From positions 4,517,501 through 4,581,500 of the forward strand of contig CALZFC010000248.1 of NCBI GenBank assembly GCA_945643635.1: 64,000 bases of DNA. Direction: 5' to 3'. A program made the translations under genes and the position numbers. Below the pieces are notes generated by a model that was not told where the DNA came from, did not search any database, and saw only the letters and a list, made by a program, of their open reading frames with translations. Source of the DNA: Allodiplogaster sudhausi (lineage: Eukaryota > Nematoda > Chromadorea > Rhabditida > Diplogasteridae). Positions 1 to 37,125 of the stretch are shown here, piece by piece (position 1 is the stretch's first letter; each line of letters opens with the position of its first letter).

Positions 1-163
1 CATTCTGATAGCAAAGCTATTTCTGTGATATTCATGTTTACACCTAGCAACGTGAAGACTAAATGAAGATACACGACCATTGCAAGGCTTAAAAATGATA
101 AACTTATTGTATTCGACTTCTACTAATCGATGCAAAATCTTATAGAAAAATGCTAGATCTATT

Positions 164-2690
164 CTAGTACGGCGAAGTAATAAAGAAGGCAGAGAAAAGA
201 GAGAAAGTCGATCAAAGTATCTAGGAACGTTTGCAAAGGAAATTTGCATGAGAGACTGAGAAGGGCATCTTATGAAAAGCAATCGAGTGAATACGTGCTG
301 GACATTTTCTAATTTACGAATAAGCGAGATCTTATAAGGTGACCAGACAACTGAAGAAAACTCAATAAATGGAAGCACGTAGGCCTTATAGCAGCGAATA
401 TAGATCATAGGGGATTTGGATTTAAGAGATCTAAATATAGCATAAATAAGACCAAGACCACGTCTACAAATTGATTCGATGTGATCAGAGAAAGAGAGAT
501 CACTATCAATAAGAATGCCTAGATCTCTAACAGGAAAGCGAGCTATCTCAAAAGTAGAAGTTGAGGAGAGAGTGTAGGAGAGTTGGGGATTCTTTTTACC
601 TATATGTAAAACGCTACACTTTTGGTGAGCGATTGATAACTGCATGTTTTGGCAGTATTCAGATAGTAGAACAGATGCTTGAGAAAGATGAGAGTGAGGC
701 AGGTCAGGCTTTTTTGGATCGAAAGAACTGTAGAGTTTAAGATCATCAGCAAAAAGTGCGGATTTCACGTGGTAGAAAGGTGACAAAAGTTTAGGGAGAT
801 CAGAAATGTACGAGATGAAAAGAAGAGGAGAGAGGACACTGCCCTGAGGCACACCACTGAACGCATGCTTAGACTCGGATAGTGAATAATTTACACGCAC
901 TCTGAAGTACCTATCACTTAGAAATGACGAAAATCAATTTAACAAATTTCCGCTAATGCCGAGAAGAGAGAGCTTATGGATTAATTTATTGTGCGACACG
1001 ACATCAAATGCTTTCGCAAAATCAAAGTATAGGACATCCGTGCACATTCCTTTATCACTCGCAGTAATCCAGTCATTTGTAGCCATTTAAAAGGTTAGTT
1101 TCCACAGAACGACGAGAGCAAAAACCGTGCTGTTGTGGAGGCACAATGTTGTTCATATCAGACCACCATATAAGTTTGGGACGAATGCAACGCTCAAGAA
1201 CCTTAATTGGTGCTGCTGTGAGAGATATAGGACGAAAATGAGATACAGAGGAAGGGTTGCTGATCTTGTTAAGAGGGATGACAGTTGAGGTTTTCCAAAG
1301 AGTGGGGACTTGACCGAGCGAGAGAGAGAAGTTGAAAATGTAACTGAGGGGTTCAGCTAAGACAGATGCACACTCACGATAAACAATCTGGGGAATGTTT
1401 TCAGCATTGATGGAGATAGAAGGTTTGAGGCGTTTTAGATGTTTCAAGACAGTATGTGGCATTACAATGAGGTCAGAAAGAGAGTGAGAGAAAGATGTAG
1501 ACGAGGGAGAAGGTAACCTTCCGTTATCATGTACGAACACCGATGAGAAATAGTTAGCTAGTTCATTTGCTTTAGCGGGGTCGCCCACACACTTGTTGCC
1601 CGAGTTATCAGAGAGGGAGCTAATTACCAGCCGGCGCTTAAGGCGAGACCCGACGTAAGCAAAGAGAGCCTTAGAAGAGCGCAGAAGACGAGACTCGCGG
1701 TTTCGATTGAACTTATCTATTTCGCCTGAGATCTTTTTACAAACGCGATAGTATTCAGCACGGACCGGCTGACAGTTTAATTTGGCATAGAGAGCAGCCT
1801 TGTGAGAAAGAAGAGCTTTGATATGTGGCGGGTACGTGTCATATGGCAAGCGGCGTGAGCGAAGGGGAGTGCACTCGTACAGATAAGATGAGAGAATTGC
1901 AAGAAAGCGCTCGTGAATATCGTCTATTGATTCGAAATTGTCTAGAGCGGCAGTCCAATGGACTGAAGAAAGAGAGGAAGTCAGACGAGGAAAATCAGTT
2001 TTACGAAAATCATACATGGGTTCGAAAACAGGTTGGTAATCTAGAGAGAGAGAAAAGGTGACAGAAGCATGATCGGAGGATGCAAAGGGTGCTGTTACTA
2101 TGCAGTTAGAGACGCAGTTAGGAGAGGCGTGGACTATATCTAGTAGATTGTTCTTACGAGTTGGCAACTGGAACATGTTTAGATAGAGATAGATCATTTG
2201 CTAAATCGAGAAGCAGTTTAGCTTGCGCACTTCCTACTGTACTAGATGACCAATCAATATGCAAATTTAAATCGCCAAGAAGGACTGCAGAGTGCGGGAC
2301 AGCGAGATGTGTATCAAGACAATTAAAGAGGGTGGCATTTTGAGCAGTTGTTGTAGACGGGGGCCTGTATACAAGAACGAAACGAGTACGAGAAATGCTA
2401 ATGGGAGCACTAATGTCAATGGCCAGGATGTCACAATTTGATTTGAGAGCAAATTTTACGGGAACAGCATCTATGAAATGTGAGCAGAGAATTAAGACTC
2501 CAACACCGCGCTTAGCAGAGCGATCAGCGCGAAAAATATTGTAAGGAAAATTTGCAACTATTTCAGAATCAAGAATATTAGAATTAAGCCAGGTTTCGCA
2601 TACAGCAACCATGTCCGGCCTATAGAGAGAGAGAAAAACATGCAAATGAGAGAGCTTCTTAATAAGAGAGCGAGAGTTAAAAAGCGACAC
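164..2690 (-). pseudogene. LINE ORF2: endonuclease plus reverse transcriptase, broken
   Basis: From the 5' side, an APE endonuclease-like segment (LFNSRSLIKK, then DMVAVCETWL, then LLGDLNLHIDW) is followed by a linker and the reverse transcriptase (HFRPISLTAAPIKVLERC, QQHGFC, YFDFAKAFDVVSH, GVPQGSVLSP, FADD). Three lesions are visible. A frame change lies near 2160-2170, between the endonuclease and the LPTRKNNLLDIV block. A second frame change lies near 1073, just before DWITASDKG. A TGA at 934-936 replaces the Trp expected in N(W)FSSFLSDRYF. The frame reopens after each lesion, so these are point decay events, not a deletion. The 5' end has no ATG close to the first conserved residues; ORF2 frame is open back across the ORF1 stop, so reinitiation or frameshifting may have been used by active copies. 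The terminal stop is at 164-166. Confidence 0.88.
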
Positions 2691-2707
2691 AGAGACAGCA
2701 CCTAGAC

Positions 2708-3523
2708 TCAGGAGTTTCCCTGTCCGGCAGGCCCAGCACCGACGGCAGCAGGCGCGGCGGGAGCAGCCGTGGGTAGAGCGGCCGGCGGAAGAGTTTTCCG
2801 CACACGACCAGCAATCTCGCTCTTAATCCACAGCTCATCCCGGTAGATGCACCACTGGTTCGCCGGCTCCGCTCGACGAAGAGCTTGGAGTTGCTTGCGC
2901 ATCTCCGCGTGCCTGGCCCGCTCCTCATTCGTCATGCTCCTCCTAACGTAGACTCCCCTCCACTCATCTCTCTCACGAAGTGTATGAGCTGCACGTAGGC
3001 AGCTCAGCTGGTGACCCCGAGTCGGCAGCACACACTTGATCAGCCTAGGCGTGTTCTCATCGCGCTGACCCATTCGGTAAACCGAAGTGGGCCGGCACTC
3101 CACGCCCAGCGTGTCAAGAAGGGCCGCAATTCGCACCTCGTCATCGGCCACCTTGGCCTGGTGCGATGTGGCTGCCGACTCATGCAGGCCAGACACCACG
3201 ATCGATCGAGCACGGGTCATCGGGTCATCGCCTTGAGAGGGAGGAGCAGACTGAGGGACATGAACAGAAACGCCTGGGGGATGGGGAGCGGCAGTGAGAG
3301 GCGGCCAAGATGGAGAGGAAGGTCTCGCAGAAGACAATGTGGAGATATGCTCCAGAGCGCTGGCCAAGAGGTTGACCAATTGAGACAGAACCTTCCACGT
3401 GGCATCTGGAACTCCCTCTGGCTTATCCCCAGTGGCCAGAGTCAGAGACTCAATGACCAGCTTGCTGAGGTCTGGGGAAGCCGGGACCTCCATTCTGCCA
3501 CGCTTCAGGCGATGAGGAGACAT
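2708..3523 (-). CDS. LINE ORF1 protein (nucleic-acid binding)
   Basis: An open frame of 271 codons from ATG at 3523. I chose this Met because upstream codons come only from the 5' tandem repeat. The N-terminal half is Ser/Pro rich. The C-terminal half carries a conserved block seen in ORF1 proteins of nematode LINEs: RSIVVSGLHE, a DDEVRIAALLDTLGVE helix, YRMGQR, then RLIKCVLP and a basic SMTNEERARHAEMRKQ stretch. It probably binds the element RNA during target-primed reverse transcription; this is inferred from the family. It ends 18 bases upstream of the first clear ORF2 codons, a normal bicistronic LINE layout. It lacks visible lesions, unlike ORF2. Confidence 0.75.
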   Translation of the reverse strand: MSPHRLKRGRMEVPASPDLSKLVIESLTLATGDKPEGVPDATWKVLSQLVNLLASALEHISTLSSARPSSPSWPPLTAAPHPPGVSVHVPQSAPPSQGDDPMTRARSIVVSGLHESAATSHQAKVADDEVRIAALLDTLGVECRPTSVYRMGQRDENTPRLIKCVLPTRGHQLSCLRAAHTLRERDEWRGVYVRRSMTNEERARHAEMRKQLQALRRAEPANQWCIYRDELWIKSEIAGRVRKTLPPAALPTAAPAAPAAVGAGPAGQGNS

Positions 3524-4003: not shown

Positions 4004-5526
4004 TTACTTTAAATTATCTTGTTTATCATATTGGCCGATATCACAAAACAAAGCACGGTAAACATTGAAAGGTCGGTAAAGATACCTTGTTATTGATATT
4101 TCAATATTTAGACATAGGCATTGGAAAGCGTGAGTGAGGCGCATGGGAAAGAGATGGAGAAGAGGCGGAAGAGAGATTCCTTCTCCTGTCTTACTGTATT
4201 TCTCCTTGATCGCTTTTTCTGCAATCGCAATCTTGGTCTTCTCTGATAATCGAGCGTATTCTTCCTTGCTCATCAGCGTTGTCTTCAATTCAGTCGTCGT
4301 GATCGAATCGATGCAAAATTCCTAAGCGGTCGATTAATTGTGCTAATAATTTACTATGTTTTTTTATGCCCTATCGTTTTGTTCTCTTGCTCAATGAATA
4401 CCTTAAGAATGGCGATGTTATAGCTGTCGGCCCAGAGAACCTTCTTCTCCAGTGGAACTTCACGACTGTCCGCGCTGCACAGAAATTTAGTGCACTCAAT
4501 CTGAAGGCACTGAAGGGCGAAGCGAACGCTGAGACGAAGAAGGAACTCGACGTTCTCGGCTGCGAAGGTAAAGTACTTTCTTTTCAATAATAAAATATAT
4601 TAAAAGAATATTCTTATCAACTACTTTAACACCTTCTCTTTCTTGTCCACTTGCAGAAAACATTTCTTGTTCTATTAAAAAAAAAGATTAATTCAGAATT
4701 CATGTTTTTTTTGAGCTAATATTTTTGTAAAAACTGCACCGGCGACGGGCTTCCGAGAAGGATAAATAACTTGGAGAAGCTCGTTGAACTCGTCAAAGTC
4801 GACGTCGTCAAGTGGAATCTCCGACATTCCCTGTTCGCGAAAACCCTTGAAGGCGTAGAAGGCGTAGAAGGCTCTCTGGCGTAGAAGACGGGCGACAACA
4901 TCGACAGGTACTGTATAATATGAGTTATTCTTTTCATACTATAAAGTCATTTAAAGCAATAATATTATATGTTTCATATTAAATAGAAATAATAGGGAGC
5001 TCTGTGCCAATTCGTGCCTCTTTTCCAACGTATAACGGCTTGCCATCGACGACTAGGGTGACATCAATAACATCCCGAATGTTTGGCTCAGAAGTTGTAA
5101 AGTCGTAGAGCGGCGTTCTGAAAAAAAAAGCTGGATTTTCAATATGTTGTAGAAAAAATACATAATTAGCTTCTTTTTGGCATAAATATAACTTTGAAAT
5201 TTCATTATGTCGGCAATAATTGAAACGGAATGTTTTGTCCAATTCGTAAAGCTTAGATTAAGTACTGAATGCCGGTGATCTCCTTCTCAATGGCGATCTT
5301 CGCCTCGACGGTGATCTCCTTCGAGCTGCGGAAGACGTTATCCAACTCGATGATTGACGTGAAGCTAAAACTCTTCGCTTTCCCGCTCGATGTGTTTGTC
5401 AGCTGAAAAAAATGTTCATTTGAAAAGTTGTTTGCTTACACTCGTGCCTCTCTATCTTTTATTACTTTCTTTCTATTTTCATTCATTTATTCAAGTTCAT
5501 CAGCAGGCTTGCAAAGGTGGAACAAG

Positions 5527-13072: not shown

Positions 13073-13682
13073 GAGAGAGCGAGGGAAGCGAGAGCGAGGC
13101 TAAAATTGAGAGAAAGATAGGGAGAGCCATAGTTGAGAGGAGGCAGACAACGAGAGAAAGGCTGCTACACTCCGCATGGAGCCGCCTTCGCTGCTTTCAC
13201 AAGGATAGCCATCCTCCATGTAGACATCCTCAGGGCATGCGCCCTTCTCGCCGTCGCAGAACTCGGCCAGGTCGCATTGGCGCGCGTTGCTGCGACACTC
13301 GGTGCCGCGCTTCTTCGGCTGAAAATCATCAAAATAGTACCCCTGATGCTCTCATTCGACACGTTATAACTCTAACAATAAGGTTCTTTTATTAAAGTTT
13401 GTTGTTTTTGCTCTTGTTGTTCATGTTGTTCTTGTTGTTGTCACTGTTGTTATTGTTGTTACCTTACACGTCTCCTCATCGCAGCACGCGCCTGATGCGC
13501 ACTTGGCGTCGCCCTTCAGGCGGCAGCTTTCCGCATCGCAGCACGACCAGATGCACTCTTCGGAGTCCTCGGAAAGAAAGATAAGAGCTAGGGGGACAGG
13601 GAGTAACAAAAAGAGATAAAGTAAGAGAAAGAGAGCGAAGGATGGAGAAAGAGAAAAGTGAGAGAAAGAAAGAAAAAGAAAA

Positions 13683-13717
<35 letters not shown>

Positions 13718-16700
13718 TAGAGGGAGAAAAGTGTTGCCCACCTTGAAACCACAATCGCACTCCTCGTCTTTTTCGAGAATTCCGTTGCCGCAGTCGGCAC
13801 TGATAGAATCTATTGGCACGTTGAGCAGGCAGATATCGACATTCTTCTTCATCAATTCCCTCATGTTGTTGAGGGAGCACTTCGACCAGTGCGACGCCGT
13901 TTGCTGCCTAGAGATGTGGTTAGAGAAAGAGAGGAGACAGGAGAGCGAAGAGACAAAGAGAGAGGAGAGGCAGAGAAGCAGAGACAGAGAAAGTTAGAGA
14001 AAGAGAGGAGACCGGAGAGCGAAGAGACAAAGAGAGAGGAGAGGAAGAGAAGCAGAGACAGAGAAAGTTAGAGAAAGAGAGGAGACCGGAGAGCGAAGAG
14101 ACAAAGAGAGAGGAGAGGCAGAGAAGCAGAGACAGAGAAAGTTAGAGAAAGAGAGGAGACCGGAGAGCGAAGAGACAAAGAGAGAGGAGAGGAAGAGAAG
14201 CAGAGACAGAGAAAGTTAGAGAAAGAGAGGAGACCGGAGAGCGAAGAGACAAAGAGAGAGGAGAGGCAGAGAAGCAGAGACAGAGAAAGTTAGAGAAAGA
14301 GAGGAGACCGGAGAGCGAAGAGACAAAGAGAGAGGAGAGGAAGAGAAGCAGAGACAGAGAAAGTTAGAGAAAGAGAGGAGACCGGAGAGCGAAGAGACAA
14401 AGAGAGAGGAGAGGCAGAGAAGCAGAGACAGAGAAAGTTAGAGAAAGAGAGGAGACCGGAGAACGAAGAGACAAAGAGAGAGGAGAGGAAGAGAAGCAGA
14501 GACAGAGAAAGTTAGAGAAAGAGAGGAGACCGGAGAGCGAAGAGACAAAGAGAGAGGAGAGGCAGAGAAGCAGAGACAGAGAAAGTTAGAGAAAGAGAGG
14601 AGACCGGAGAGCGATGAGACAAAGAGAGAGGAGAGGAAGAGAAGCAGAGACAGAGAAAGTTAGAGAAAGAGAGGAGACCGGAGAGAGAGGAGACAAAGAG
14701 AGAGGAGAGGCAGAGAAGCAGAGACAGAGAAAGTTAGAGAAAGAGAGAAGACAGGAGAGAGAGGAGAGGAAGAGAGAGGCGAGGCAGAGAAGCAGAGACA
14801 GAGAAAGTTAGAGAAAGAGAGAAGACAGGAGAGAGAGGAGACGAAGAGAGAGGAGAGGCAGAGAAGCAGAGACAGAGAAAGTTAGAGAAAGAGAGGAGAC
14901 CGGAGAGCGAAGAGACAAAGAGAGAGGAGAGGAAGAGAAGCAGAGACGGAGAAAGTTAGAGAAAGAGAGGAGACCGGAGAGAGAGGAGACAAAGAGAGAG
15001 GAGAGGCAGAGAAGCAAAGACAGTTAGAGAAAGGGAAAAGACAGGAGAGAGAGGAGAGGAAGAGAGAGGCGAGGCAGAGAAGCAGAGACAGAGAAAGTTA
15101 GAGAAAGAGAGAAGACAGGAGAGAGAGGAGACGAAGAGAGAGGAGAGGCAGAGAAGCAGAGACAGAGAAAGTTAGAGAAAGAGAGAAGACAGGAGAGAGA
15201 GGAGACGAAGAGAGAGGAGAGGCAGAGAAGCAGAGACAGAGAAAGTTAGAGAAAGAGAGAAGACAGGAGAGAGAGGAGACGAAGAGAGAGGAGAGGCAGA
15301 GAAGCAGAGACAGAGAAAGTTAAAGAAAGAGAGAAGACAGGAGAGAGAGGAGACGAAGAGAGAGGAGAGGCAGAGAAGCAGAGACAGAGAAAGTTAGAGA
15401 AAGAGAGAAGACAGGAGAGAGAGGAGACGAAGAGAGAGGAGAGGCAGAGAAGCAGAGACAGAGAAAGTTAGAGAAGGAGAGAAGACAGGAGAGAGAGGAG
15501 ACGAAGAGAGAGGAGAGGCAGAGAAGCAGAGACAGAGAAAGTTAGAGAAAGAGAGAAGACAGGAGAGAGAGGAGACGAAGAGAGAGGAGAGGCAGAGAAG
15601 CAGAGACAGAGAAAGTTAGAGAAAGAGAGAAGACAGGAGAGAGAGGAGACGAAGAGAGAGGAGAGGCAGAGAAGCAGAGACAGAGAAAGTTAGAGAAAGA
15701 GAGAAGACAGGAGAGAGAGAGGAGACGAAGAGAGAGGAGAGGCAGAGAAGCAGAGACAGAGAAAGTTAGAGAAAGAGAGAAGACAGGAGAGAGAGGAGAC
15801 GAAGAGAGAGGAGAGGCAGAGAAGCAGAGACAGAGAAAGTTAGAGAAAGAGAGAAGACAGGAGAGAGAGGAGACGAAGAGAGAGGAGAGGCAGAGAAGCA
15901 GAGACAGAGAAAGTTAGAGAAAGAGAGAAGACAGGAGAGAGAGGAGACGAAGAGAGAGGAGAGGCAGAGAAGCAGAGACAGAGAAAGTTAGAGAAAGAGA
16001 GAAGACAGGAGAGAGAGGAGACGAAGAGAGAGGCGAGGCAGAGAAACAGAGACAGAGAAAGTTAGAGAAAGAGAGAAGACAGGAGAGAGAGGAGACGAAG
16101 AGAGAGGCGAGGCAGAGAAGCTGAGACAGAGAAAGTTAGAGAAAGAGAGAAGACAGGAGAGAGAGGAGACGAAGAGAGAGGAGAGGCAGAGAAGCAGAGA
16201 CAGAGAAAGTTAGAGAAAGAGAGAAGACAGGAGAGAGAGGAGACGAAGAGAGAGGCGAGGCAGAGAAGCTGAGACAGAGAAAGTTAGAGAAAGAGAGAAG
16301 ACAGGAGAGAGAGGAGACGAAAAGAGAGAGGCGAGGCAGAGAAGCTGAGACAGAGAAAGTTAGAGAAAGAGAGAAGACAGGAGAGAGAGGAGAAGAAGAG
16401 AGAGGCGAGGCAGAGAAGCAGAGACAGAGAAAGTTAGAGAAAGAGAGAAGACAGGAGAGAGAGGAGACGAAGAGAGAGGCGAGGCAGAGAAGCAGAGACA
16501 GAGAAAGTTAGAGAAAGAGAGAAGACAGGAGAGAGGAGACGAAGAGAGAGGCGAGGCAGAAAGAGAGAAGACAGGAGAGAGAGGAGACGAAGAGAGAGGC
16601 GAGGCAGAGAAGCTGAGACAGAGAAAGTTAGAGAAAGAGAGAAGACAGGAGAGAGAGGAGACGAAGAGAGAGGCGAGGCAGAAAAAGAGAAGACAGGAGA

Positions 16701-26608: not shown

Positions 26609-29600
26609 ATGCCAACCTCGCTGCGCACGATCCTCGTCGACTTTGCGACGTGGTCGAGCATCGCGTGATTCCGCAATCTCGCGTGCGCCTTCAATGGCGC
26701 GCAACGCTTCTTCTGGCTCGTCGTCACGCTGCTTCTGTACTACTTCGTTTATGCTTCATTACTTTATGATTTCACTCATTAATTCGGTGTTTCAAATACA
26801 TATTTTTAATATTTCCTAATGTGTTTGTTGTTCAAAACTTCTGGTTAAAAAACAAGCCATAGCATAAGAATTGTCTTTAGGTACTGCTTCAAGACTTATT
26901 ACTCTAAAGTATAATTTTAATTCTAATGGTACCTTCGAACGACAAAAGTTAAATTATATTTATGAAGAATATGTAAGAAAGTAGCTCGCAACCATTCATA
27001 CAAATAAGAATTTCTGAGAGATTCCTTGTCCTCCCCTAGGACGGCCTTCTTCATCTACCAACTCGCATGGATTATTCAAACGTATTTGTCATGGCCAAAG
27101 GACACGGCCACCTCGATGACGTTCAGTCAACAAGTCAGTCGACTTCACTCTTTCTCTCCCTCTTTCTCTCACTATCTCTCTTCTCTCTCTTCTCTCTATC
27201 TCTCACTGCCTCTCTCGATCTATTTTTCTCTACTTTCTGCGTACGCTTACATATTTACTCATCTTCTCTAATGCGAATTTCACTTTCCCATTAAGTCAAC
27301 GTTCATTATCGATACCTCTCTGCATATCTCTGCTCCTTTGTAAGTCTTGCAACCGTTCCCTCTCAGACCTTCCCGGCCGTGACCTTCTGCAACTTCAACC
27401 CATTCAAGTGGTCGGTGGTGGAGGCCGAGCCGGCCTTTGCCGAGATTGCTCTTCTCATGCGCCAGATGGATGCCATCAATGAGAAGACGCCAAATGCCAG
27501 CGACTCTTTCTACATTGCACGTCATGCCTTCAGTTAACACTAAGAATAAGGGATATCACCTTATAAGGAATCACAATGCAGTAGCATAGCTATCAACTAT
27601 GAACGTTTGAAAGTAATAGTGATACTCTTACCATTAGGCAGAATTTGTTTTTATTGCATCTTAAAGAACGAAACTGTCTATAGGAAATAAAGATATATGT
27701 ATATTATTATATCCAAAGCTTGGCATCATTGCCCTGAAGTCTGCCACAACGAATAAATGATCTTAGGTTCACAGTTCTTCAAGTAATACATTTCTTATAT
27801 ATTTTTTTAAATTGTTCATTGTAAGTCTTAAGATCCTTCACATCTTGTCCTAATCATGCAGGTGTGGTCGCATCAAATAACTTTGGTGTAATAAATTACT
27901 ATAATATTTCTATCTCTATTCTCCAGTCTGATGTCGAGACGCCGTACGAGATGGATGAGCGCGCGCGTGACATGCTCGCGCTGCTCGCGGCCAAGATGGA
28001 CGCGGCTGAGAGGTCGCGCGCCATGTACAGCTACGATGACCTCGTCACCGAGTGCACCTTTGCAGCGCAGCCATGCCAGCTGTGAGGAGGGAGAGAGAGA
28101 GAGAGATGGAGGGAGAGAGGAGAGAGAGAGAGAGAGTGAGAAAGAGGGAGAGAGAGGGAGAGAGAGAGGTCGCGCGCCATGTACAGCTACGATGACCTCG
28201 TCACCGAGTGCACATTTGCTGCGCAGCAATGCCAGCTGTCAGGGAGTTTGAGAAAGAGAGCACCGCGTTTTGTCCCCAATAGTTTGGGGAGCATCTGATT
28301 TTTCTCGCCAATCTACGGGCAGATTCTGTGGATTTTTACTAATCTACGGACACGGCGCACAATTCATATACATATGACCGATGAAGGCTTCATGGAACGC
28401 TATAAAAGAGGGAGGGAGAGATTGAGAGAGAGGGAGAAAGGAAGTGCTGAGGCTAATAAAGAGAAAGAGAGCGAAAAGATGTTCAGCTCGTCCTTCAATG
28501 CCTTCACGCATCCCGACTGCGGGACGTGCCTCCAGTTCGTCACGAACAAGACGGTCGTGCGAGTCGGAATCACCTACGGTCTCCGCATGCTCCTCACAAT
28601 CAAGGTCACCTTTTTATAGTCAGATACATTATTCATTGTACTTGTTAATATAAACATGCATAACTTTGTTTCGCAATACCCTGCCAAAGAAGAACTGCTG
28701 TAAGGAACTTGGACTCACTATCAGCTTTTTTTGAATATATATTATTCTCACCATCAAGCGCTGTAAACTTGACAATTCGTTGTTGGAAAGTTGTGCTTAC
28801 CATTCATTAGTCGTCGGATGCACACTTTCCGTGTCTTTTTAACTGAACATTGAATATGTTACACTTTTGTAACAAAATGGCATGACAGCTTGCTATTGGC
28901 TCCATGGTGATGCACCGGGATTCTGCTTGTGGCTTACTCTCCACTCCCTTAAACTCCGTGTGCATATTTTTGGAGCTTTTCTGCCCACCTTTTTCTATCT
29001 TCTACACGCGCTGAGTACATGCGCTCTCGCGTGCTCGCTCAAAGAATGTACAGTACTTGCTTAGCACCTAGAGAAGTTTACAAGTTTACAAGTTTATTCC
29101 ACAACAGGTCAGAGACCTTGAGAAGGTCGAGAGATAATGAAAAGAAGAGAGAAAAAAGAAGGAACGAAATTTTCTTCGGATACACATTCACTGTGTAACT
29201 GTCCTTTAACCACGAACAATGAATGCACGAATTGAATGTTAGTGAAGGCGAGAATGAAAAAAGAAGAGATAAACACATCTTCCTCTATGTCATAGAAATC
29301 ATAAATGCGTATATTGTGCTAACATTGGTATTTATGAGTACACAACTGTCGAATAATTTGAACAATAGCTTTGGAAGAAACTCTCGCTTGACTAAACAAT
29401 GACATCGACATTTATGCATTAGAATCTGACAATCCCTTTGCAGCAGCAACAGTCAACAAATCAAGACTACGACTTCTTGTCAACAACGGACAAGGCCGGC
29501 TTCCGTCTCGTCGTCCACGATCCATCCTACTTACCGGCCTTCGATGTCCACCCGATCGACGTCGGCGTCGGCTCACAGGCATCCGTCGCGGTTTCAAAGG

Positions 29601-32600
29601 CAGGAAGTGTTCACTTAATAATGAAAACAAGTCGATGTTGTTATAACGTTTTTGGAAGAAAAAACTCTCATGACACGGCAGCGAAGATAAAAGCTTTTTT
29701 TCAGAGCATCATTTATCGTGCAGAGCCGCCTTATGGCAACTGAGAGTCGAAGAGACGAACTATTATACTGTTGGTTACTGTACCATTTTTCCTCTTCTTC
29801 AAAGGTTTCCTAGTAAAACAAACTCTGCACCAGGAAGAATTCGGACAAACAGAAAAATGCAAAATGAAATCATGTTTGAGAAACGCTATGAAATCATCCA
29901 TAATCGTCCTCATCCTAATCTAGGCCTACAACTACACGATCGAAACATGCTTCAACAGTTGCATACAGCGCAACATTATCCAACGGTACCTCGCCTTACT
30001 TATTTCTTTCGACGAATGAGTAATGAGAACCAAAAAAATCTTACTAAGATGTTATTTAAATTCTTTATTCCATTCAGCAATTAGTAAATGCCTTGCTTTC
30101 AGGTCCTAAGCCTAAGCGCCGACCCTCGCTACCTGCAAGACGCCGCAAACTATACAGCAACGTGTTCAACACCTCAAGATAGTGCGTTGCTCGCAATTAC
30201 AAATAATAATTAATAAATTAACATTTTAATAAAGTGTAACAAAATTAATCATAATAAATAAAGATTCACTAAAACATTTTTCTCTCTTTTTATATTGCAC
30301 AAAATTCCAGTGGTGTGCCTCCAAACGCTGAAAGGCGACCAGACTGCGGAGGAAGAGAATCTGAACGCCCTGACCGACTGCGACTGCAGACCGGCTTGCG
30401 AGCAGGTCGACTACTCCATGACAGTCACGCTCGCCAGGTGTCACTTTCATATTTTATGTACTATGTCTTAAGAGAGCCTGTCTGAGATATTCAACCATGG
30501 CCATAGCAGAAGGTGCAGGGAACAAAAATATTTTTTGGTTTTAATTTCCTTTGCAAGGCTTATGTAGCATCATGAGAGCTTCCAAAAAAAATTTTTTTCA
30601 AAAAAATATTTTGAATGTATAACTACAGTATGCCTCGATTTATCGAAAATATTCGATTGATTATAAAATTCGTAAAAGGTAACCAAACTAAATTTTGAAA
30701 GTATCGCTAGATTCGTCATCTAAAGGTGCATAAAATTGCCTAAACAAGTTTTTCATAAAAGTTTCATTATAAGGTCGAAATGAGCACTTATATTATGGGA
30801 ATGCGCCATTAGAGTGACAAGCAGTAGAAACTGCGCGATGAGACCATATTCATTTGATAGAGCGTCATTTGTTACCTCTAGAAAACTGCCTCTCATGTGG
30901 ATCCTCCTACGGGAACTTTACAATGTACGGGGGTGAACACCGCGTGGAGTAATAACCCGCAGAACAAAAAATGACTATAAAATGCGTTTTTCTCGCTCTT
31001 TTCAGAAATCAAAGATACCATTGTGTTTATAATTTTGAAATGCATAAAAATGTCATACAAAATTTGTACATACGATTACATTCTCAATCATTTTTTCGGC
31101 AAAGACGAATTTCTGCCTGTGTCGCAGACATAGAAGCGCCTTTAATTGCACATAGACATCAGAACTACTCCACAATTTCTACTTCATTTGAAAGGGCAGT
31201 GTTTTTCACGTCGGATAAAATACTCATTGTTTGTACTTTCTTTCCCGAGAGCTCGGCGTGTTTAGTTGACCCCACGGAGCTCAGTGCAGTTAGTTCAAAA
31301 AATCTCATTTAACCTCGCTAACATGCGTCAAACTGAATATTATGCAAAATTATTGTCATATTCGTGTTCGTGGTATTAATAAACCCCCCTGGAGTCAATT
31401 TGGAGAAAAAAAAATTCTCAAAAAAAAAATTCGAATATTTTCAGACAAATTTCGTAAAAAAGTAGAAATTTTTAGGAAAATTTTTTTTCTAAAAAATTGA
31501 CTTCAGAGGGGTTTATTAATACCACGAACACGAATATGACAATTATTTTGCATAATATTCAGTTTGACGCATGTTAGCGAGGTTAAATGAGATTTTTTGA
31601 ACTAACTGCACTGATCTCCGTGGAGTCAACTAAACACCACGAGCTCTCGGGAGAGAAAGTACAAACAATGAGTATTTTATCCGACGTGAAAAACACTGCC
31701 CTTTCACATGAAGTAGAAATTGTGGCGTAGTTCTGATGTCTATGTGCAATTAAAGGTTCTTCTATGTCTGCGACACAGGCAGAAATTCGGTTTTTGCCGA
31801 AAAAGTGATTGAGAATGTAATCGTATGAACAAATTATGTATGACATTTTTATGCTTTTCTAAATTATAAACACAATGGTATCTTTGGTTTCTGAAAAGAG
31901 CGAGAAAAACGCATTTTATAGCCATTTTTTGTTCTGCGGGTTATTACTCCACGCGGTGTTCACCCCCGTACATTGTAAAGTTCCCGTAGGAGGATCCACA
32001 TGAGAGGCAGTTTTCTAGGGATAGCAAATGACGCTCTATCAAATGGATATGGTCTCATCGCGCAGTTTCTACGTCTTGGCACTCTAATGGCGCATTCCCA
32101 GAATATAAGTGCTCATTTCGTCCTTATAATGAAACTTTTATGAAATCCTTTCTATGTTTTTTTGTGCGCCTTTAGATAACGAATAAAACGATACTTTCAA
32201 AATTTAGTTTTGTTAAGTTTTACTAACTCTACGGTCAATCGAATATTTTCGATAAATCGAGGCATACTGTAGTTATACCTTCAAAATATTTTTTGAAAAA
32301 AAGTTTTTTTCGAAGCTCTCATGATGCTACATAAGCCTTGCAAAGGAAATTAAAATCAAAAAATATTTTTGTTCCCTGCACCCTCATGATCGAGTATCTC
32401 AGACAGGCTCTCTTAATATACTTCTGAGATTATCACTAGCAATGAATATTAATAAAATGCTAATTAATAGTCATTTTCACGTCCTTTTAGATACCCGGCT
32501 CAGAAATACAATGTCGGCACGGGCACTACAGAGCAGCAGCAACATCTGAAGGTGGCTTATATGAACGAAATGATGACGTCACTTAATTTATCATTTAATC

Positions 32601-35600
32601 TGACAATGACATAAAAAACCGAATATTTACAGGAGATTATCCACGCTTCTTCAAAGTACAGGACCATCACCACGAGTAAGGCCAAACCAAGCACAACGAC
32701 CGCCAGTACAACTACTCCCACTATCCAACTCCCTACAAGCCCAGTGCCGTTTCCCTCTGTGCCGATTCCCCCAGTGCCGTTACACACAGCGCCGATTACC
32801 GGAGTACCCATTACCACAGTACCGACTCCCGCAATACCGACTTCCAAAGTACCGATTACCACAGTTCCGGATACCACAGTGCCTTCTACCGAAGTGCCGA
32901 TTACCACAGTGCCTTCTACCGAAGTGCCGATTACCACAGTGCCTTCTACCGAAGTGCCGATTACCACAGTGCCTTCTACCGAAGTGCCGATTACCACAGT
33001 GCCTTCTACCGAAGTGCCGATTACCACAGTGCCTTCTACCGAAGTGCCGATTACCACAGTGCCTTCTACCGAAGTGCCGATTACCACAGTGCCTTCTACC
33101 GAAGTGCCGATTACCACAGTGCCTTCTACCGAAGTGCCGATTACCACAGTGCCTTCTACCGAAGTGCCGATTACCACAGTGCCTTCTACCGAAGTGCCGA
33201 TTACCACAGTGCCTTCTACCGAAGTGCCGATTACCACAGTGCCTTCTACCGAAGTGCCGATTACCACAGTGCCTTCTACCGAAGTGCCGATTACCACAGT
33301 GCCTTCTACCGAAGTGCCGATTACCACAGTGCCTTCTACCGAAGTGCCGATTACCACAGTGCCTTCTACCGAAGTGCCGATTACCACAGTGCCTTCTACC
33401 GAAGTGCCGATTACCACAGTGCCTTCTACCGAAGTGCCGATTACCACAGTGCCTTCTACCGAAGTGCCGATTACCACAGTGCCTTCTACCGAAGTGCCGA
33501 TTACCACAGTGCCTTCTACCGAAGTGCCGATTACCACAGTGCCTTCTACCGAAGTGCCGATTACCACAGTGCCTTCTACCGAAGTGCCGATTACCACAGT
33601 GCCTTCTACCGAAGTGCCGATTACCACAGTGCCTTCTACCGAAGTGCCGATTACCACAGTGCCTTCTACCGAAGTGCCGATTACCACAGTGCCTTCTACC
33701 GAAGTGCCGATTACCACAGTGCCTTCTACCGAAGTGCCGATTACCACAGTGCCTTCTACCGAAGTGCCGATTACCACAGTGCCTTCTACCGAAGTGCCGA
33801 TTACCACCGTGCCGACTACCAGAGAACCGATTACCACAGTGCCTTCTACCGAAGTGCCGATTACCACAGTGCCTTCTACCGAAGTGCCGATTACCACAGT
33901 GCCTTCTACCGAAGTGCCGATTACCACAGTGCCTTCTACCGAAGTGCCGATTACCACAGTGCCTTCTACCGAAGTGCCGATTACCACAGTGCCTTCTACC
34001 GAAGTGTCCATTACCACCGTGCCGACTACCAGAGAACCGATTACCACAGTGCCGATCACCACAGTGCCTACAACCACAGTGCCTGTAACCACCGGCTTGC
34101 CAACAACAACGACACCTGTCACGAAACCACTAACGACTGCAGCGACCACGACCACGTATAACACTGCCTAGCATATAAATGTAACATTTGCAAACCTGAG
34201 TATAGACACTCGCATGAAAGAATTGATATAAATCATGTCCAATTGTGGAAATCGAAACGAAACATTTTCATCATTCCTTATTCATTTCGTGTCATTTTGA
34301 ATAGCCACACCACACGCCAATTGTAATAGAAATGGATCGGCACAATAAAAAAGGATTGCAAGTCCTCTCCTAAACTTGCTTGTTTCAGTCCAACTACGAC
34401 GACACCGGCGCCCACGACAACTTTGGTGACTACCACAACAGAACCGACAACGACGACGTGAGAATCTCTTCTTAAACGTGACATGAACATCGAACTGTCT
34501 TACAATTAGATTAGAGGAGGAAAAGAAATATGCGAGATTAAAAATTCCCACGGACCTTCGCACTCTCATACGCGCGTGCTATTTTAACGCAGCCGGCATT
34601 GTGCAACTTACGAAATAGCACACAAGAATGAGAGTGTCTAACCAGCGAGTGAACGCGGCAAGTCGAACCTGCATAAATTATGTTTTCTGTCGTCCTTCCT
34701 TAATTGTCCAAACTAGGTTGGTCGGACAAGTAAGGAACGCTCAAGACAGCGTGGTTCTTTGCTGTGAAAGGTGTCTACACTTTCCGAGAGAAATTCAATA
34801 TTTACTAATCAACAATCGATACCTTCCGAGCGAAATTCATCTAATGTAAGCCGTGTCCATTTGCCATATTAGAACGGAGTGCACGCCGGCGCCAAAGTAC
34901 TACACGGATTTGCTTGCAACTTCGAGATGGTTTGGACTTTGTCCCGACTCCCCGGTCGGCATGAACTGTGTGTTAGTATCGCATCTATATTCTTCTGCTC
35001 TATAAGTATGCCGTTCTGTTTTACATATGCATAATTGAGCAGCATTAATTTACACATATTAAATTCGTTCAGAAATTGACGAAGTAGCATGACAATAAAT
35101 TAAAAACAAAAAAGTAGTTATGAGTGGATAGTATATTCGAGATAAACATTAGGTTACGCTCTTTTAAAGCGGCGCCCGCCTCTGCTGCAAACGCAGCTTT
35201 ACTCATGGCGACCTGGATCCGAACGAGTATTGGTCGACGTGTTGGCCGTGCTACTACACGTGCGACAACAATGATCACATTCCGGAGAATCCCGAGTTTG
35301 ACAAGTCATGCAAAGACGTACTGTAGTCGAAATACATACATTCATACATATATCTTTCCACTCTCTTTCTCTCCCTCTCCATCTCGCTTCTCTGTCTGTA
35401 ATTCTCTAACAGCCTTCTTTAATCTCCAACGTTTCTTCCTTCTATGGTATCATTCTTTCTCTACTTCTTCTTCAGTTCTACAAGTACTACTCCTTCGAAA
35501 ACTATGCGCTGACTCGTCCGTCTTGGGACTTCACAAAAGATGAAGGCAGAGTGCCTCAGAAGTTGTGCAACGAACCCTCCGTTTGCAACAATGGCGTCGG

Positions 35601-37125
35601 TATTCCGGTCGGCTACGAGACAGGAGGCTCAGGCCGTCGCAGAAGGTTGGCAGATGACAGAGACAAGGAAAGCGCAGAGTGATCGAATGTAACAAGTAAA
35701 TTGATATAGGTGAAAAGTATGTATGTGTTCCAGATACATTGATGACTACGACCTTGAAGATTACGCTGAGGAAATATCGGCGAAGAACGAAATGCTTGCG
35801 GTTTTTGAAGCTGAGAATGGCGTGCGTTATGACTAATGTAGCCTTAGGGAATATCATGTTGATATAATCGAATCGGTTATAGACTGACGATGCGCCGCGG
35901 TCGCGTCGCGTTCGTCAGTCGTCGGATTGGACTAATAGCTGCAAGCCGGCCTGGCGAATCGACTACGCAAAGTATAAGGCCAAGCAGACTACCGCCGGAG
36001 GGCGCAGACGGAAGCGCGGTTTTCTCGACGACGTCGACATTCTCGAAGGAACAGCGCAGAAGAGATCGATTGAGCTGCCGGCTACGCCAGCCTTGCCGAC
36101 GGAACCCGTGCCACTGCCCACCCTTCCATCGACGGTGGACATCGGCGAACCCGCCGAACCACGCAAACCTACAATCAATCCACCTGCCCAGCCGATAACT
36201 GCCATTAAATCATCTGCTACATCAGGACCACCTATCCTGGTCCTATTATCTATATTTTTTAGACTTTAAACCGCAGTCATGACTGCCGATTCCTTTGATC
36301 CTGACTTCACCCAACGGGCCCTGTCCCTGGTTGTGGAATAAAGTATTAAAACTAATAAAAGTTTTAGACTCGCAAAAAAATAAGGCCAGTGCAAACAACA
36401 ACCATACTTTCAGGTCGCACCCACTCGTGCCACCAAACTTGAATCTGACAACTGCTGGAACAGCCGGCGTGCGTATACAATCATTCTGGTTGCACTTATG
36501 GGTTGAAAAGAAATAGAAAGTTTACAGCTCGGCAGTTGCGAATCGTGGAACGATAACTTTGCATCCGTGAACGAATGCGTCGTCTGGTTGGGCGCAATTA
36601 GTTGTCATTTAGTTGTTTGCCCATATACTTTATGCAAGAAGTAATATGAGCGAAGCAAAAAAATTCCGATTCTGCACGTATGCATTGTTTTCTACATATT
36701 TATAAAGTTTGTCAAATATTTCCTGCGATCTGCAGGTACAAGCAGAACGGCCTGATCGTCCAGGTCTTCTTCAGCTCGCTCACCGTCGACGTCCGCACCG
36801 AAGTGCCGTCCTATAGTGTTTGTCTTTCATATCTTTTCATGCTCTTAGAGCAAATCACGCGTGTTACTGACAAAAAAAATATGCTGTATTCATTAGATAG
36901 TTTTTTTTCTTTTTTGGCAAAGTATTGTTTGTGCCAAAACATTGCTTGCAGCTGTCCTCGGCGCTCACTGACCTCGGCGGCCAGGCTGGCCTCTGGCTCG
37001 GCCTCTCCGCCGTCTCCATCGTCGAGATCGCCAGCCTTTTGTTTGTGCTCGCCGCCTTCGCGCTTTGCGGCTCCGAACGCATCTTTCCAACACAGACAAG
37101 GAAGATTACTAAACTGCGAGGCTAA
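26609..37125 (+). CDS. DEG/ENaC channel subunit with mucin-like insertion
   Basis: At least 22 exons: 26609-26736, 27040-27133, 27367-27532, 27862-27887, 27927-28081, 28472-28604, 29444-29590 (or 29599), 29924-29985, 30111-30181, 30311-30437, 32491-32551, 32633-34155, 34389-34457, 34873-34971, 35170-35317, 35476-35645, 35734-35821, from 35883, about 36416-36475, 36528-36586, 36736-36817, 36952-37125. Landmarks in order: TM1 (RFFWLVVTLLLTAFFIYQLA), FPAVTFCNFNPFKW, YSYDDLVTECTF, YTIETCFNSCIQR, ADPRYLQD, CDCRPACEQVDYSM, QVFFSSL, TM2 (GLWLGLSAVSIVEI). Family members form trimeric cation channels in mechano-, acid- or peptide-sensing cells. Unusual: a Thr/Pro repeat region and extra Cys-rich exons before TM2. 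Odd: TGA at 26666-26668 replaces Gly of the N-terminal gating HG motif (WSSIA, stop, FRNLA). The exon end after 35883 is uncertain. Confidence 0.88.
28167..28242 (+). repeat. Partial duplicate of a DEG/ENaC exon
   Basis: About 76 bp repeating the 3' half of exon 27927-28081 (SRAMYSYDDLVTEC, then FAAQQCQL) after a GA-rich spacer of about 85 bp. The donor GTGAGG of the original is changed to GTCAGG, and the upstream side is purine-rich, so it is unlikely to splice as an alternative exon. Confidence 0.8.
30468..32416. mobile_element. Foldback transposon A, about 1 kb arms, TTAA-flanked
   Basis: The two halves are near-complete inverted copies meeting near 31450. The outer ends read TTAA then GAGAGCCTGTCTGAGATA and its complement then TTAA, so TTAA may be the target duplication. 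It lies in the intron between channel exons 30437 and 32491. Each arm keeps an open frame of about 87-113 codons (contains SACVADIE and LIAHRHQNY) with no recognised domain. Element B at 37886 has nearly the same termini. Confidence 0.9.
32880..34080 (+). repeat. 30-bp coding minisatellite (VPSTEVPITT units)
   Basis: About 37 near-identical 30-bp units plus two PTTREPITTV variants, in frame within the large DEG/ENaC exon 32633-34155. Units are almost base-identical, including synonymous sites, indicating recent expansion or gene conversion. The repeat is Thr/Ser/Pro rich, so a heavily O-glycosylated stalk is expected. Flanking diverged units (VPITGVPITTV, IPTSKVPITTV) give the older repeat edge. 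Confidence 0.97.

What the first reader, a model, noticed from the sequence alone, without database searches (positions are those of the whole stretch)
32633..34155. DEG/ENaC channel carrying a mucin-like stalk of about 39 decapeptide repeats
A 1,523-bp exon joins in phase to clear DEG/ENaC exons on both sides and encodes about 39 units of VPSTEVPITT or close variants. DEG/ENaC ectodomains are normally compact; a glycosylatable Thr/Pro stalk inserted before the pre-TM2 region would be a strong architectural departure, for example tethering the channel to cuticle or mucus for mechanosensation. The base-level identity of units means copy number probably varies between individuals.
Basis: partly seen in the sequence, partly recalled or inferred. 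Interest (0 to 1): 0.8.

Follow-up and report, generated by a model that had tools for sequence, protein, structure and literature searches.

The report
Nematode ion channel with mucin-like insert
A nematode has a family of touch/salt-type ion channel genes (DEG/ENaC) whose outer part carries a long sugar-ready stalk and a cysteine-rich cap; the copy in this window has the longest stalk of the five copies compared but is itself broken, while sister copies in the same genome read intact.

Summary
The array is real: exon 32633-34155 holds 39 decapeptides (36 exact VPSTEVPITT, 3 variants), and its exact 30-mer occurs nowhere else in the 352-Mb genome. It joins DEG/ENaC exon 32491-32551 in phase. 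DEG/ENaC resumes at 36528-37125. Four sister sequences (three loci, if C1/C90 are haplotypes) carry the same 22 exons as one open frame of 1005-1018 codons with shorter array exons (473-533 nt). In three sister pairs dN/dS is 0.06-0.17 for the channel halves and 0.41-0.66 for the insert. No start codon and tiny flanking introns (80-85 and 59-61 nt) speak against a nested gene. The window copy is a pseudogene: stop at codon 20, frame breaks in e7, e9 and m8. The insert lies in the pre-TM2 'knuckle' segment, is absent from Caenorhabditis/Mesorhabditis homologues and probably present in Pristionchus entomophagus. Best reading: a diversifying channel subfamily with a furin-clipped glycan arm, perhaps a tether. 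Tethering is untested.

The parts
26609..26736 (+). e1: start codon, pre-TM1 and start of TM1; in-frame TGA at 26666-26668 (codon 20)
   Evidence: sense codon in 4 of 4 sister sequences
27040..27133 (+). e2: TM1 and start of ectodomain
27367..27516 (+). e3: ectodomain (FPAVTFCNFNPFKW); apparent GC-AG intron follows
27927..28081 (+). e4: ectodomain
28472..28604 (+). e5: ectodomain
29444..29599 (+). e6: ectodomain; apparent GC-AG intron follows
29705..29769 (+). e7: ectodomain, 10 nt shorter than in 4 of 4 sister sequences: frameshift
29924..29985 (+). e8: ectodomain
30103..30181 (+). e9: ectodomain; length change breaks the frame and the Cys-Gly-Cys motif of the sisters
30311..30437 (+). e10: ectodomain (CDCRPACEQVDY)
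32491..32551 (+). e11: ectodomain (YPAQKYNVGTGTTEQQQHLK), last DEG/ENaC exon before the insert, phase 0 end
32633..34155 (+). m1: mucin-like stalk exon with the decapeptide array
32773..34084 (+). tandem array of the 30-bp unit as bounded by TRF; exact VPSTEVPITT units begin at 32879
34389..34457 (+). m2: Thr-rich stalk continued
34873..34971 (+). m3: start of Cys-rich region (not DEG/ENaC)
35170..35317 (+). m4: Cys-rich region (WSTCWPCYYTC)
35476..35645 (+). m5: Cys-rich region; RRRR furin-like site spans the m5/m6 join
35734..35821 (+). m6: acidic linker
35883..36239 (+). m7: twelfth Cys, RSRR and RRKR furin-like sites, Pro/Thr-rich linker; the open frame to 36269 beyond the donor is read as intron
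36414..36468 (+). m8: last insert exon, 17-20 nt shorter than in 4 of 4 sister sequences: frameshift
36528..36586 (+). t1: DEG/ENaC resumes (LGSCESWNDNFASVNECVV)
36736..36817 (+). t2: DEG/ENaC pre-TM2 strands
36952..37125 (+). t3: pore/TM2 (DLGGQAGLWLGLS) and stop

Best explanation
SHOWN by sequence: the locus is a 22-exon nematode DEG/ENaC gene of a subfamily in which eight exons (m1-m8) sit in frame between the DEG/ENaC exons e11 and t1. They add a Ser/Thr/Pro repeat stalk, a 12-cysteine region of unknown family and a linker with three furin-like sites to the pre-TM2 ('knuckle') part of the ectodomain. Sister genes with an unbroken frame exist in the same genome; this copy is a pseudogene (about 0.85 on its own) with a private, roughly threefold longer stalk exon. 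INFERRED: in the intact members the stalk is O-glycosylated, the Cys-rich cap folds by disulfides, and furin cuts behind the cap, so the cap plus stalk hang as a flexible arm on the TM1-side chain of a two-chain subunit. The arm would engage extracellular matrix, cuticle or another cell and pull on or shield the channel (about 0.35). The window's array grew by unequal exchange or slippage of a 30-bp unit.
For: Spliced DEG/ENaC exons match Pfam ASC over columns 1-453 of 455 (215 bits) and PDB ASIC5/ENaC chains. Four sister sequences keep one open frame of 1005-1018 codons through e1-e11, m1-m8, t1-t3 with matching splice borders; exon lengths differ among them by multiples of three, except at the extreme 3' end of t3 in C242b, whose last codons read differently, whereas most intron lengths vary freely. 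dN/dS in three sister pairs: DEG_N 0.09-0.17, DEG_C 0.06-0.16, Cys+furin 0.41-0.47, stalk 0.46-0.66, Pro/Thr linker 0.51-0.60. The 12 Cys and the three basic motifs are kept in the 5 copies aligned. Introns e11-m1 (80-85 nt) and m8-t1 (59-61 nt) and the absence of Met in m1 and in the open frame before it leave no room for a separate gene start. A distant tandem paralogue (L028 gene 1) has its own Thr-rich and Cys-containing insert at the same site, open through to GSCEQW. A public P. entomophagus protein joins the homologous exon to a Thr-rich stretch (P0001).
Against: No RNA or protein data: skipping m1-m8 (phase 0 on both sides) would give a compact channel and cannot be excluded. The insert evolves faster than the channel, and repeat alignment makes the stalk dN/dS rough. 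The C1/C90 pair gives DEG_N dN/dS 0.70 from 13 changes. A protein search aimed at long fused relatives returned 4 proteins, named there as ordinary DEG/ENaC or unnamed proteins of 590-733 aa, and also failed to return P0001; the Cys region alone found nothing. Cys-region similarity between the window family and L028 gene 1 is not significant (8 of 100 shuffles reach it), and a frame-shifted comparison with the P. entomophagus tail was negative. Glycosylation, cleavage and tethering were not tested.
Confidence: 0.72

Rival explanations
1. The insert is normally skipped: the gene makes a compact DEG/ENaC by splicing e11 directly to t1, and m1-m8 are an optional or minor cassette.
For: e11 ends and t1 begins in phase 0; the compact product aligns with ASC columns 1-453 and resembles compact Caenorhabditis and Mesorhabditis proteins.
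Against: It would need skipping of eight exons with conserved borders. The cassette keeps its frame and shows dN/dS below 1 in three sister pairs; 12 of 12 Cys are kept in five copies. The P. entomophagus gene model includes a Thr-rich stretch there (P0001).
Confidence: 0.12
2. The mucin-like part is a separate gene (for example a GPI-anchored mucin) nested in a DEG/ENaC intron.
For: A stop at 36267-36269 after a hydrophobic stretch and an AATAAA near 36339 first suggested this; the hydrophobic stretch is similar in close sisters.
Against: No Met in m1 or in the open frame upstream of it, flanking introns of only 80-85 and 59-61 nt; the hydrophobic tail lies behind a conserved donor and runs into a TA repeat of varying length.
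Confidence: 0.03
3. The window copy is functional: its stop and frame breaks are assembly or sequencing errors.
For: Its alignable exon columns are 93-94% identical to the sisters; its excess of replacement changes is modest (10, the stop included, against 3-5 in other copies).
Against: Four separate lesions, three of them multi-base length changes, plus a foldback element in intron 10 and a partial exon duplication not seen in the sisters' introns.
Confidence: 0.12

Closest known systems
DEG/ENaC (Pfam ASC, PF00858), nearest hits in Pristionchus, Caenorhabditis, Mesorhabditis (P0001-P0004)
   Same: Two transmembrane helices, FPAVTFCN, Cys-rich ectodomain, GLWLGLS pore/TM2
   Different: About 500 extra residues in the sisters (about 836 codons in this copy) before the pre-TM2 segment: stalk, 12-Cys region, furin-like linker; P0002-P0004 lack them
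C. elegans EGAS (EGF plus ASC domain) channels
   Same: DEG/ENaC with an added extracellular module (name from passages of PMC10424705)
   Different: No EGF or other significant Pfam domain in this insert; EGAS sequences were not compared here
alpha/gamma ENaC
   Same: alpha-ENaC N511 in the knuckle is important for shear response and N-glycans are taken as tether points (passages of PMC7958617); furin processing of ENaC (recalled)
   Different: ENaC uses single N-glycans, not a mucin stalk; its furin sites are in the finger domain (recalled)
GPIb-alpha type mechanoreceptors
   Same: Receptor under force on a mucin-like stalk (stalk recalled; PMC5021522 seen only in a listing with the start of its abstract)
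   Different: Not an ion channel; no homology looked for

Membership tests
DEG/ENaC (ASC) | ASC domain over its length in the spliced exons | tested here: met
   215 bits, columns 1-453/455 (typed product with the insert and e7 left out, e9 from an alternative acceptor and a residue in place of the stop)
DEG/ENaC (ASC) | Two transmembrane helices bracketing the ectodomain | tested here: met
   e1-e3 and t2-t3 pieces match the two ends of ASC; homologue P0003 modelled with helices 31-61 and 456-484 (mean pLDDT 67)
DEG/ENaC (ASC) | Uninterrupted reading frame in this copy | tested here: not met
   First stop at codon 20 and three frame breaks
DEG/ENaC (ASC) | Uninterrupted reading frame in sister copies | tested here: met
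   4 of 4 sister sequences fetched over the whole gene (exon borders by alignment to the window); a further partial copy, L038, has frame breaks
DEG/ENaC (ASC) | Amiloride-sensitive trimeric cation channel | not testable with these tools
   needs expression
Mucin-type domain | Ser/Thr/Pro-rich tandem repeats | tested here: met
   S+T 40%, P 20% of m1; 87 VPxTx-like units in the window, 16-20 in four sisters; the only Pfam match of the exon is Extensin_1, far under its cut-off (36.3 of 105 bits)
Mucin-type domain | O-glycosylation | not testable with these tools
   composition only
EGAS | EGF domain plus ASC | tested here: not met
   no EGF match in the insert
Independent nested mucin gene | Own start codon and space for a 5' end | tested here: not met
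   no Met, 80-85 nt upstream intron, 5 of 5 copies

The most novel reading that the evidence does not exclude
A nematode lineage evolved DEG/ENaC subunits with a built-in, furin-released glycan arm: the subunit matures as two chains, and the 12-Cys cap on a variable-length mucin stalk rooted in the knuckle acts as the extracellular gating tether. Repeat number would tune arm length, so stalk length evolves by unequal exchange as a heritable setting of mechanical or adhesive sensitivity.
Probability: 0.25. Interest if true: 0.85.

Novelty: new variant of a known kind. Interest (0 to 1): 0.62.

Why it matters
How DEG/ENaC channels are coupled to the matrix is an open question; knuckle glycans of alpha-ENaC are one proposed tether (PMC7958617, passages). 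A channel family with a genetically encoded stalk and cap at that place, in copies of different stalk length beside compact paralogues, would let tether length be tested directly. Six searches of the open-access library listed no paper whose title or abstract start describes such an architecture; two searches listed only 10 of 31 and 10 of 97 papers, and subscription papers are mostly not held.

Tried and rejected
Nested GPI-anchored mucin gene: first suggested by the stop at 36269 and an AATAAA, rejected on sister alignments. Compact e11-t1 splice as the only product: kept as a rival. Relation of the Cys region to known families: Pfam, PDB and protein-cluster searches gave nothing significant (best PDB E 0.095, a lectin over 31 positions; best Pfam E 0.13 in 1 of 5 members). 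Long fused relatives in the protein clusters: not seen among 4 hits. Homology of the window's Cys region to the P. entomophagus tail in a shifted frame: not above shuffles. Homology to the L028 Cys region: not significant. TGA as a recoded cysteine: considered, dropped because the sisters have a sense codon there and other frame breaks exist. A DEG-wide protein search and a pre-TM2-exon search of the genome never ran.

Full report
WHAT IS THERE. The window is C242:4517501-4581500 of an unnamed 351.8-Mb assembly. The nearest protein is a partial one from Pristionchus entomophagus (37% identity over 77% of the query, E 2.7e-100), so the source is probably a rhabditid nematode, perhaps a diplogastrid; the species was not identified. 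Thirty-five DNA 30-mers are identical, and an exact-match search of the whole genome finds those 35 and no other.

THE GENE AROUND IT. Exon-by-exon reading gives a DEG/ENaC: the spliced channel exons match Pfam ASC over columns 1-453 of 455 at 215 bits, against 158.6 bits (columns 1-423) when the TM2 exons are replaced by the insert. The 5' neighbour of the array exon is DEG/ENaC. DEG/ENaC resumes at 36528 with LGSCESWNDNF, supported by 68% identity to P0001 over 19 residues.

SISTER GENES. A six-frame search of the genome with the Cys-rich region gave 66 exon-level matches. Grouped by place (coordinates entered by hand), those at E<=1e-3 form 13 loci, the window included. For 9 of the 13 I saw the DEG/ENaC tail just downstream (window, C242:4438580, C1, C90, both C103 copies, C273, both C16 copies). 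In C82 no tail was seen in the stretch held, and C7, C10 and C4 were not examined. Of 8 weaker matches (E 0.003-1), 5 lie 1.3-1.9 kb upstream of an ASC TM2 match on the same strand (about 0.0003 expected per random place, though two of the five, on C40, look like copies of each other). The TM2 list used (51 rows) is incomplete: it misses the window's own.

SISTERS WITH AN OPEN FRAME. I fetched whole genes for four sister sequences: C242b, C1, C90 and C103 (joined in 59). All four carry the same 22 exons as one frame of 1005-1018 codons from ATG through the insert to a stop after TM2. Splice borders match in 5 of 5 copies, with two apparent GC-AG introns. Exon length differences among the four are multiples of three, with one exception: the last codons of t3 in C242b read differently and it ends a few residues sooner than the other three. 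C1 and C90 are 99.0% identical in exon columns and 96.3% in non-coding columns, and each has an ASC match about 40 kb away in the same arrangement. They are probably two haplotypes, so the four sequences may be three loci. Their m1 exons differ by 30 nt (518 against 488), the size of one decapeptide.

SELECTION. In three sister pairs dN/dS is 0.09-0.17 for the TM1-side half, 0.06-0.16 for the TM2-side half, 0.41-0.47 for the Cys/furin exons, 0.46-0.66 for the stalk and 0.51-0.60 for the Pro/Thr linker. The fourth pair, C1/C90, has too few changes to read and gives 0.70 for the TM1-side half (4 silent, 9 replacing). So the channel is constrained, and the insert is constrained more weakly; repeat alignment makes the stalk value rough. 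The 12 cysteines of m3-m7 and an RRRR, an RSRR and an RRKR motif are invariant in the five copies aligned, the window's among them.

THIS COPY IS BROKEN. Against the four sisters the window has an in-frame TGA at codon 20, a 10-nt shortening of e7, a length change in e9 that also removes the Cys-Gly-Cys motif, and a 17-20-nt shortening of m8. It alone among the five carries a foldback element of about 1.9 kb in intron 10 (2,053 nt against 102-109). Window-specific codon changes in DEG/ENaC exons are 15 silent and 10 replacing (the stop among them), against 10-14 and 3-5 in other copies (e7, e9, m1, m7, m8 and the end of t3 left out, C1 and C90 taken as one). This fits a recent pseudogene. Unbroken copies exist, as described. 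The partial second C103 copy (L038) also has frame breaks, so the family seems to gain and lose members.

NOT A NESTED GENE. The array exon has no methionine, nor has the open frame before it. The introns e11-m1 and m8-t1 are 80-85 and 59-61 nt in five copies. The hydrophobic, GPI-like ending at 36269 lies behind a conserved donor and runs into a TA repeat whose length varies among copies; I therefore read it as intron, although the few codons before the repeat are alike in close sisters.

HOW OLD AND HOW WIDE. Caenorhabditis and Mesorhabditis homologues P0002-P0004 are compact at this place, as is, read by eye, L028 gene 2 in the same genome. Its tandem neighbour, L028 gene 1, has a Thr-rich and Cys-containing insert at the same site, open in frame through to MGSCEQW (exons placed by eye). 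L027 has a Ser/Thr-rich exon after the same exon and a last insert exon ending TSGTAG before LGSCEPW; its full insert was not modelled. P0001 of P. entomophagus runs from GVGTTEQNNNQK into PTTTSTTTSTS.... Position agrees, but the Cys-rich parts of these deeper relatives could not be shown to be homologous. The inserts may therefore share an origin or have been rebuilt there. No fused relative was seen in the protein-cluster searches aimed at the insert or at long proteins.

WHERE IT SITS. In the PDB alignments the join lies between the strand ending in the ..FPSQK/YPAQK segment and the stretch before NGL..QVFF. In human alpha-ENaC the aligned stretch begins at residue 508, thirteen query residues after the join, and N511 is described as a knuckle residue important for shear response (passages of PMC7958617). 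A model of the compact homologue P0003 (mean pLDDT 67) puts the site in a weakly predicted stretch (385-411, under 50 at 393-400) of an ASIC/ENaC/FaNaC-like fold. That this is the ASIC 'knuckle' with helices alpha6-alpha7 is recalled.

MECHANISM. Shown: one open frame in the sisters, constraint on both channel halves, invariant cysteines and basic motifs, variable repeat number. Inferred: O-glycosylation of the stalk, furin cutting behind the cap, and a free arm on the TM1-side chain that binds matrix or another surface. The parallel with knuckle glycans as tethers (PMC7958617) makes mechanical coupling the leading guess. Adhesion, mucus protection, or shielding of the channel from proteases or pH are alternatives that the sequence does not separate.

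LITERATURE SEEN. PMC12867699 (12 of 50 passages) describes P. pacificus DEG/ENaC mutants and names no such insert in the passages shown. PMC10424705 (passages) names EGAS channels. PMC7958617 (12 of 13 passages) gives the tether argument. PMC10148893 was searched by terms: furin, insert, EGF and mucin had no hits. PMC5021522 was seen in a listing with the start of its abstract only.

Noticed in passing
window 30509-32385: Foldback element of about 1.9 kb (nested inverted arms 84-96% complementary) in intron 10; the intron is 102-109 nt in the four sister sequences.
   Followed up: partly
window 28165-28240: Partial second copy of exon e4 in the e4-e5 intron, which is 390 nt here and 214-240 nt in the four sisters.
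   Followed up: partly
window 13919-16568: Purine-rich satellite, 36 copies of a 74-bp unit at 96%.
   Followed up: no
window 1-2822, minus strand: Non-LTR retrotransposon remains: RVT_1 and endonuclease matches.
   Followed up: no
window 13103-13351, minus strand: Disintegrin (ADAM-like) fragment, slightly under the Pfam cut-off (33.3 of 35.1 bits).
   Followed up: no
window 4696-4938, minus strand: BTB domain fragment.
   Followed up: no
window 27516/27517 and 29599/29600: Two apparent GC-AG introns kept in 5 of 5 gene copies.
   Followed up: partly
P0001 (Pristionchus entomophagus): The public protein begins with the TM2 part of one DEG/ENaC and ends in the Thr-rich part of the next and what follows it, as expected if a stalk insert misled gene prediction in a tandem cluster.
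   Followed up: partly
L028 (C15:1222000-1231999): Tandem DEG/ENaC pair in the same genome, one with and one (by eye) without the pre-TM2 insert.
   Followed up: partly
L027 (C242:7541000-7550999): Distant paralogue with a Ser/Thr-rich exon after e11 and further open stretches, including a hydrophobic one, inside a long insert; full gene model not built.
   Followed up: partly
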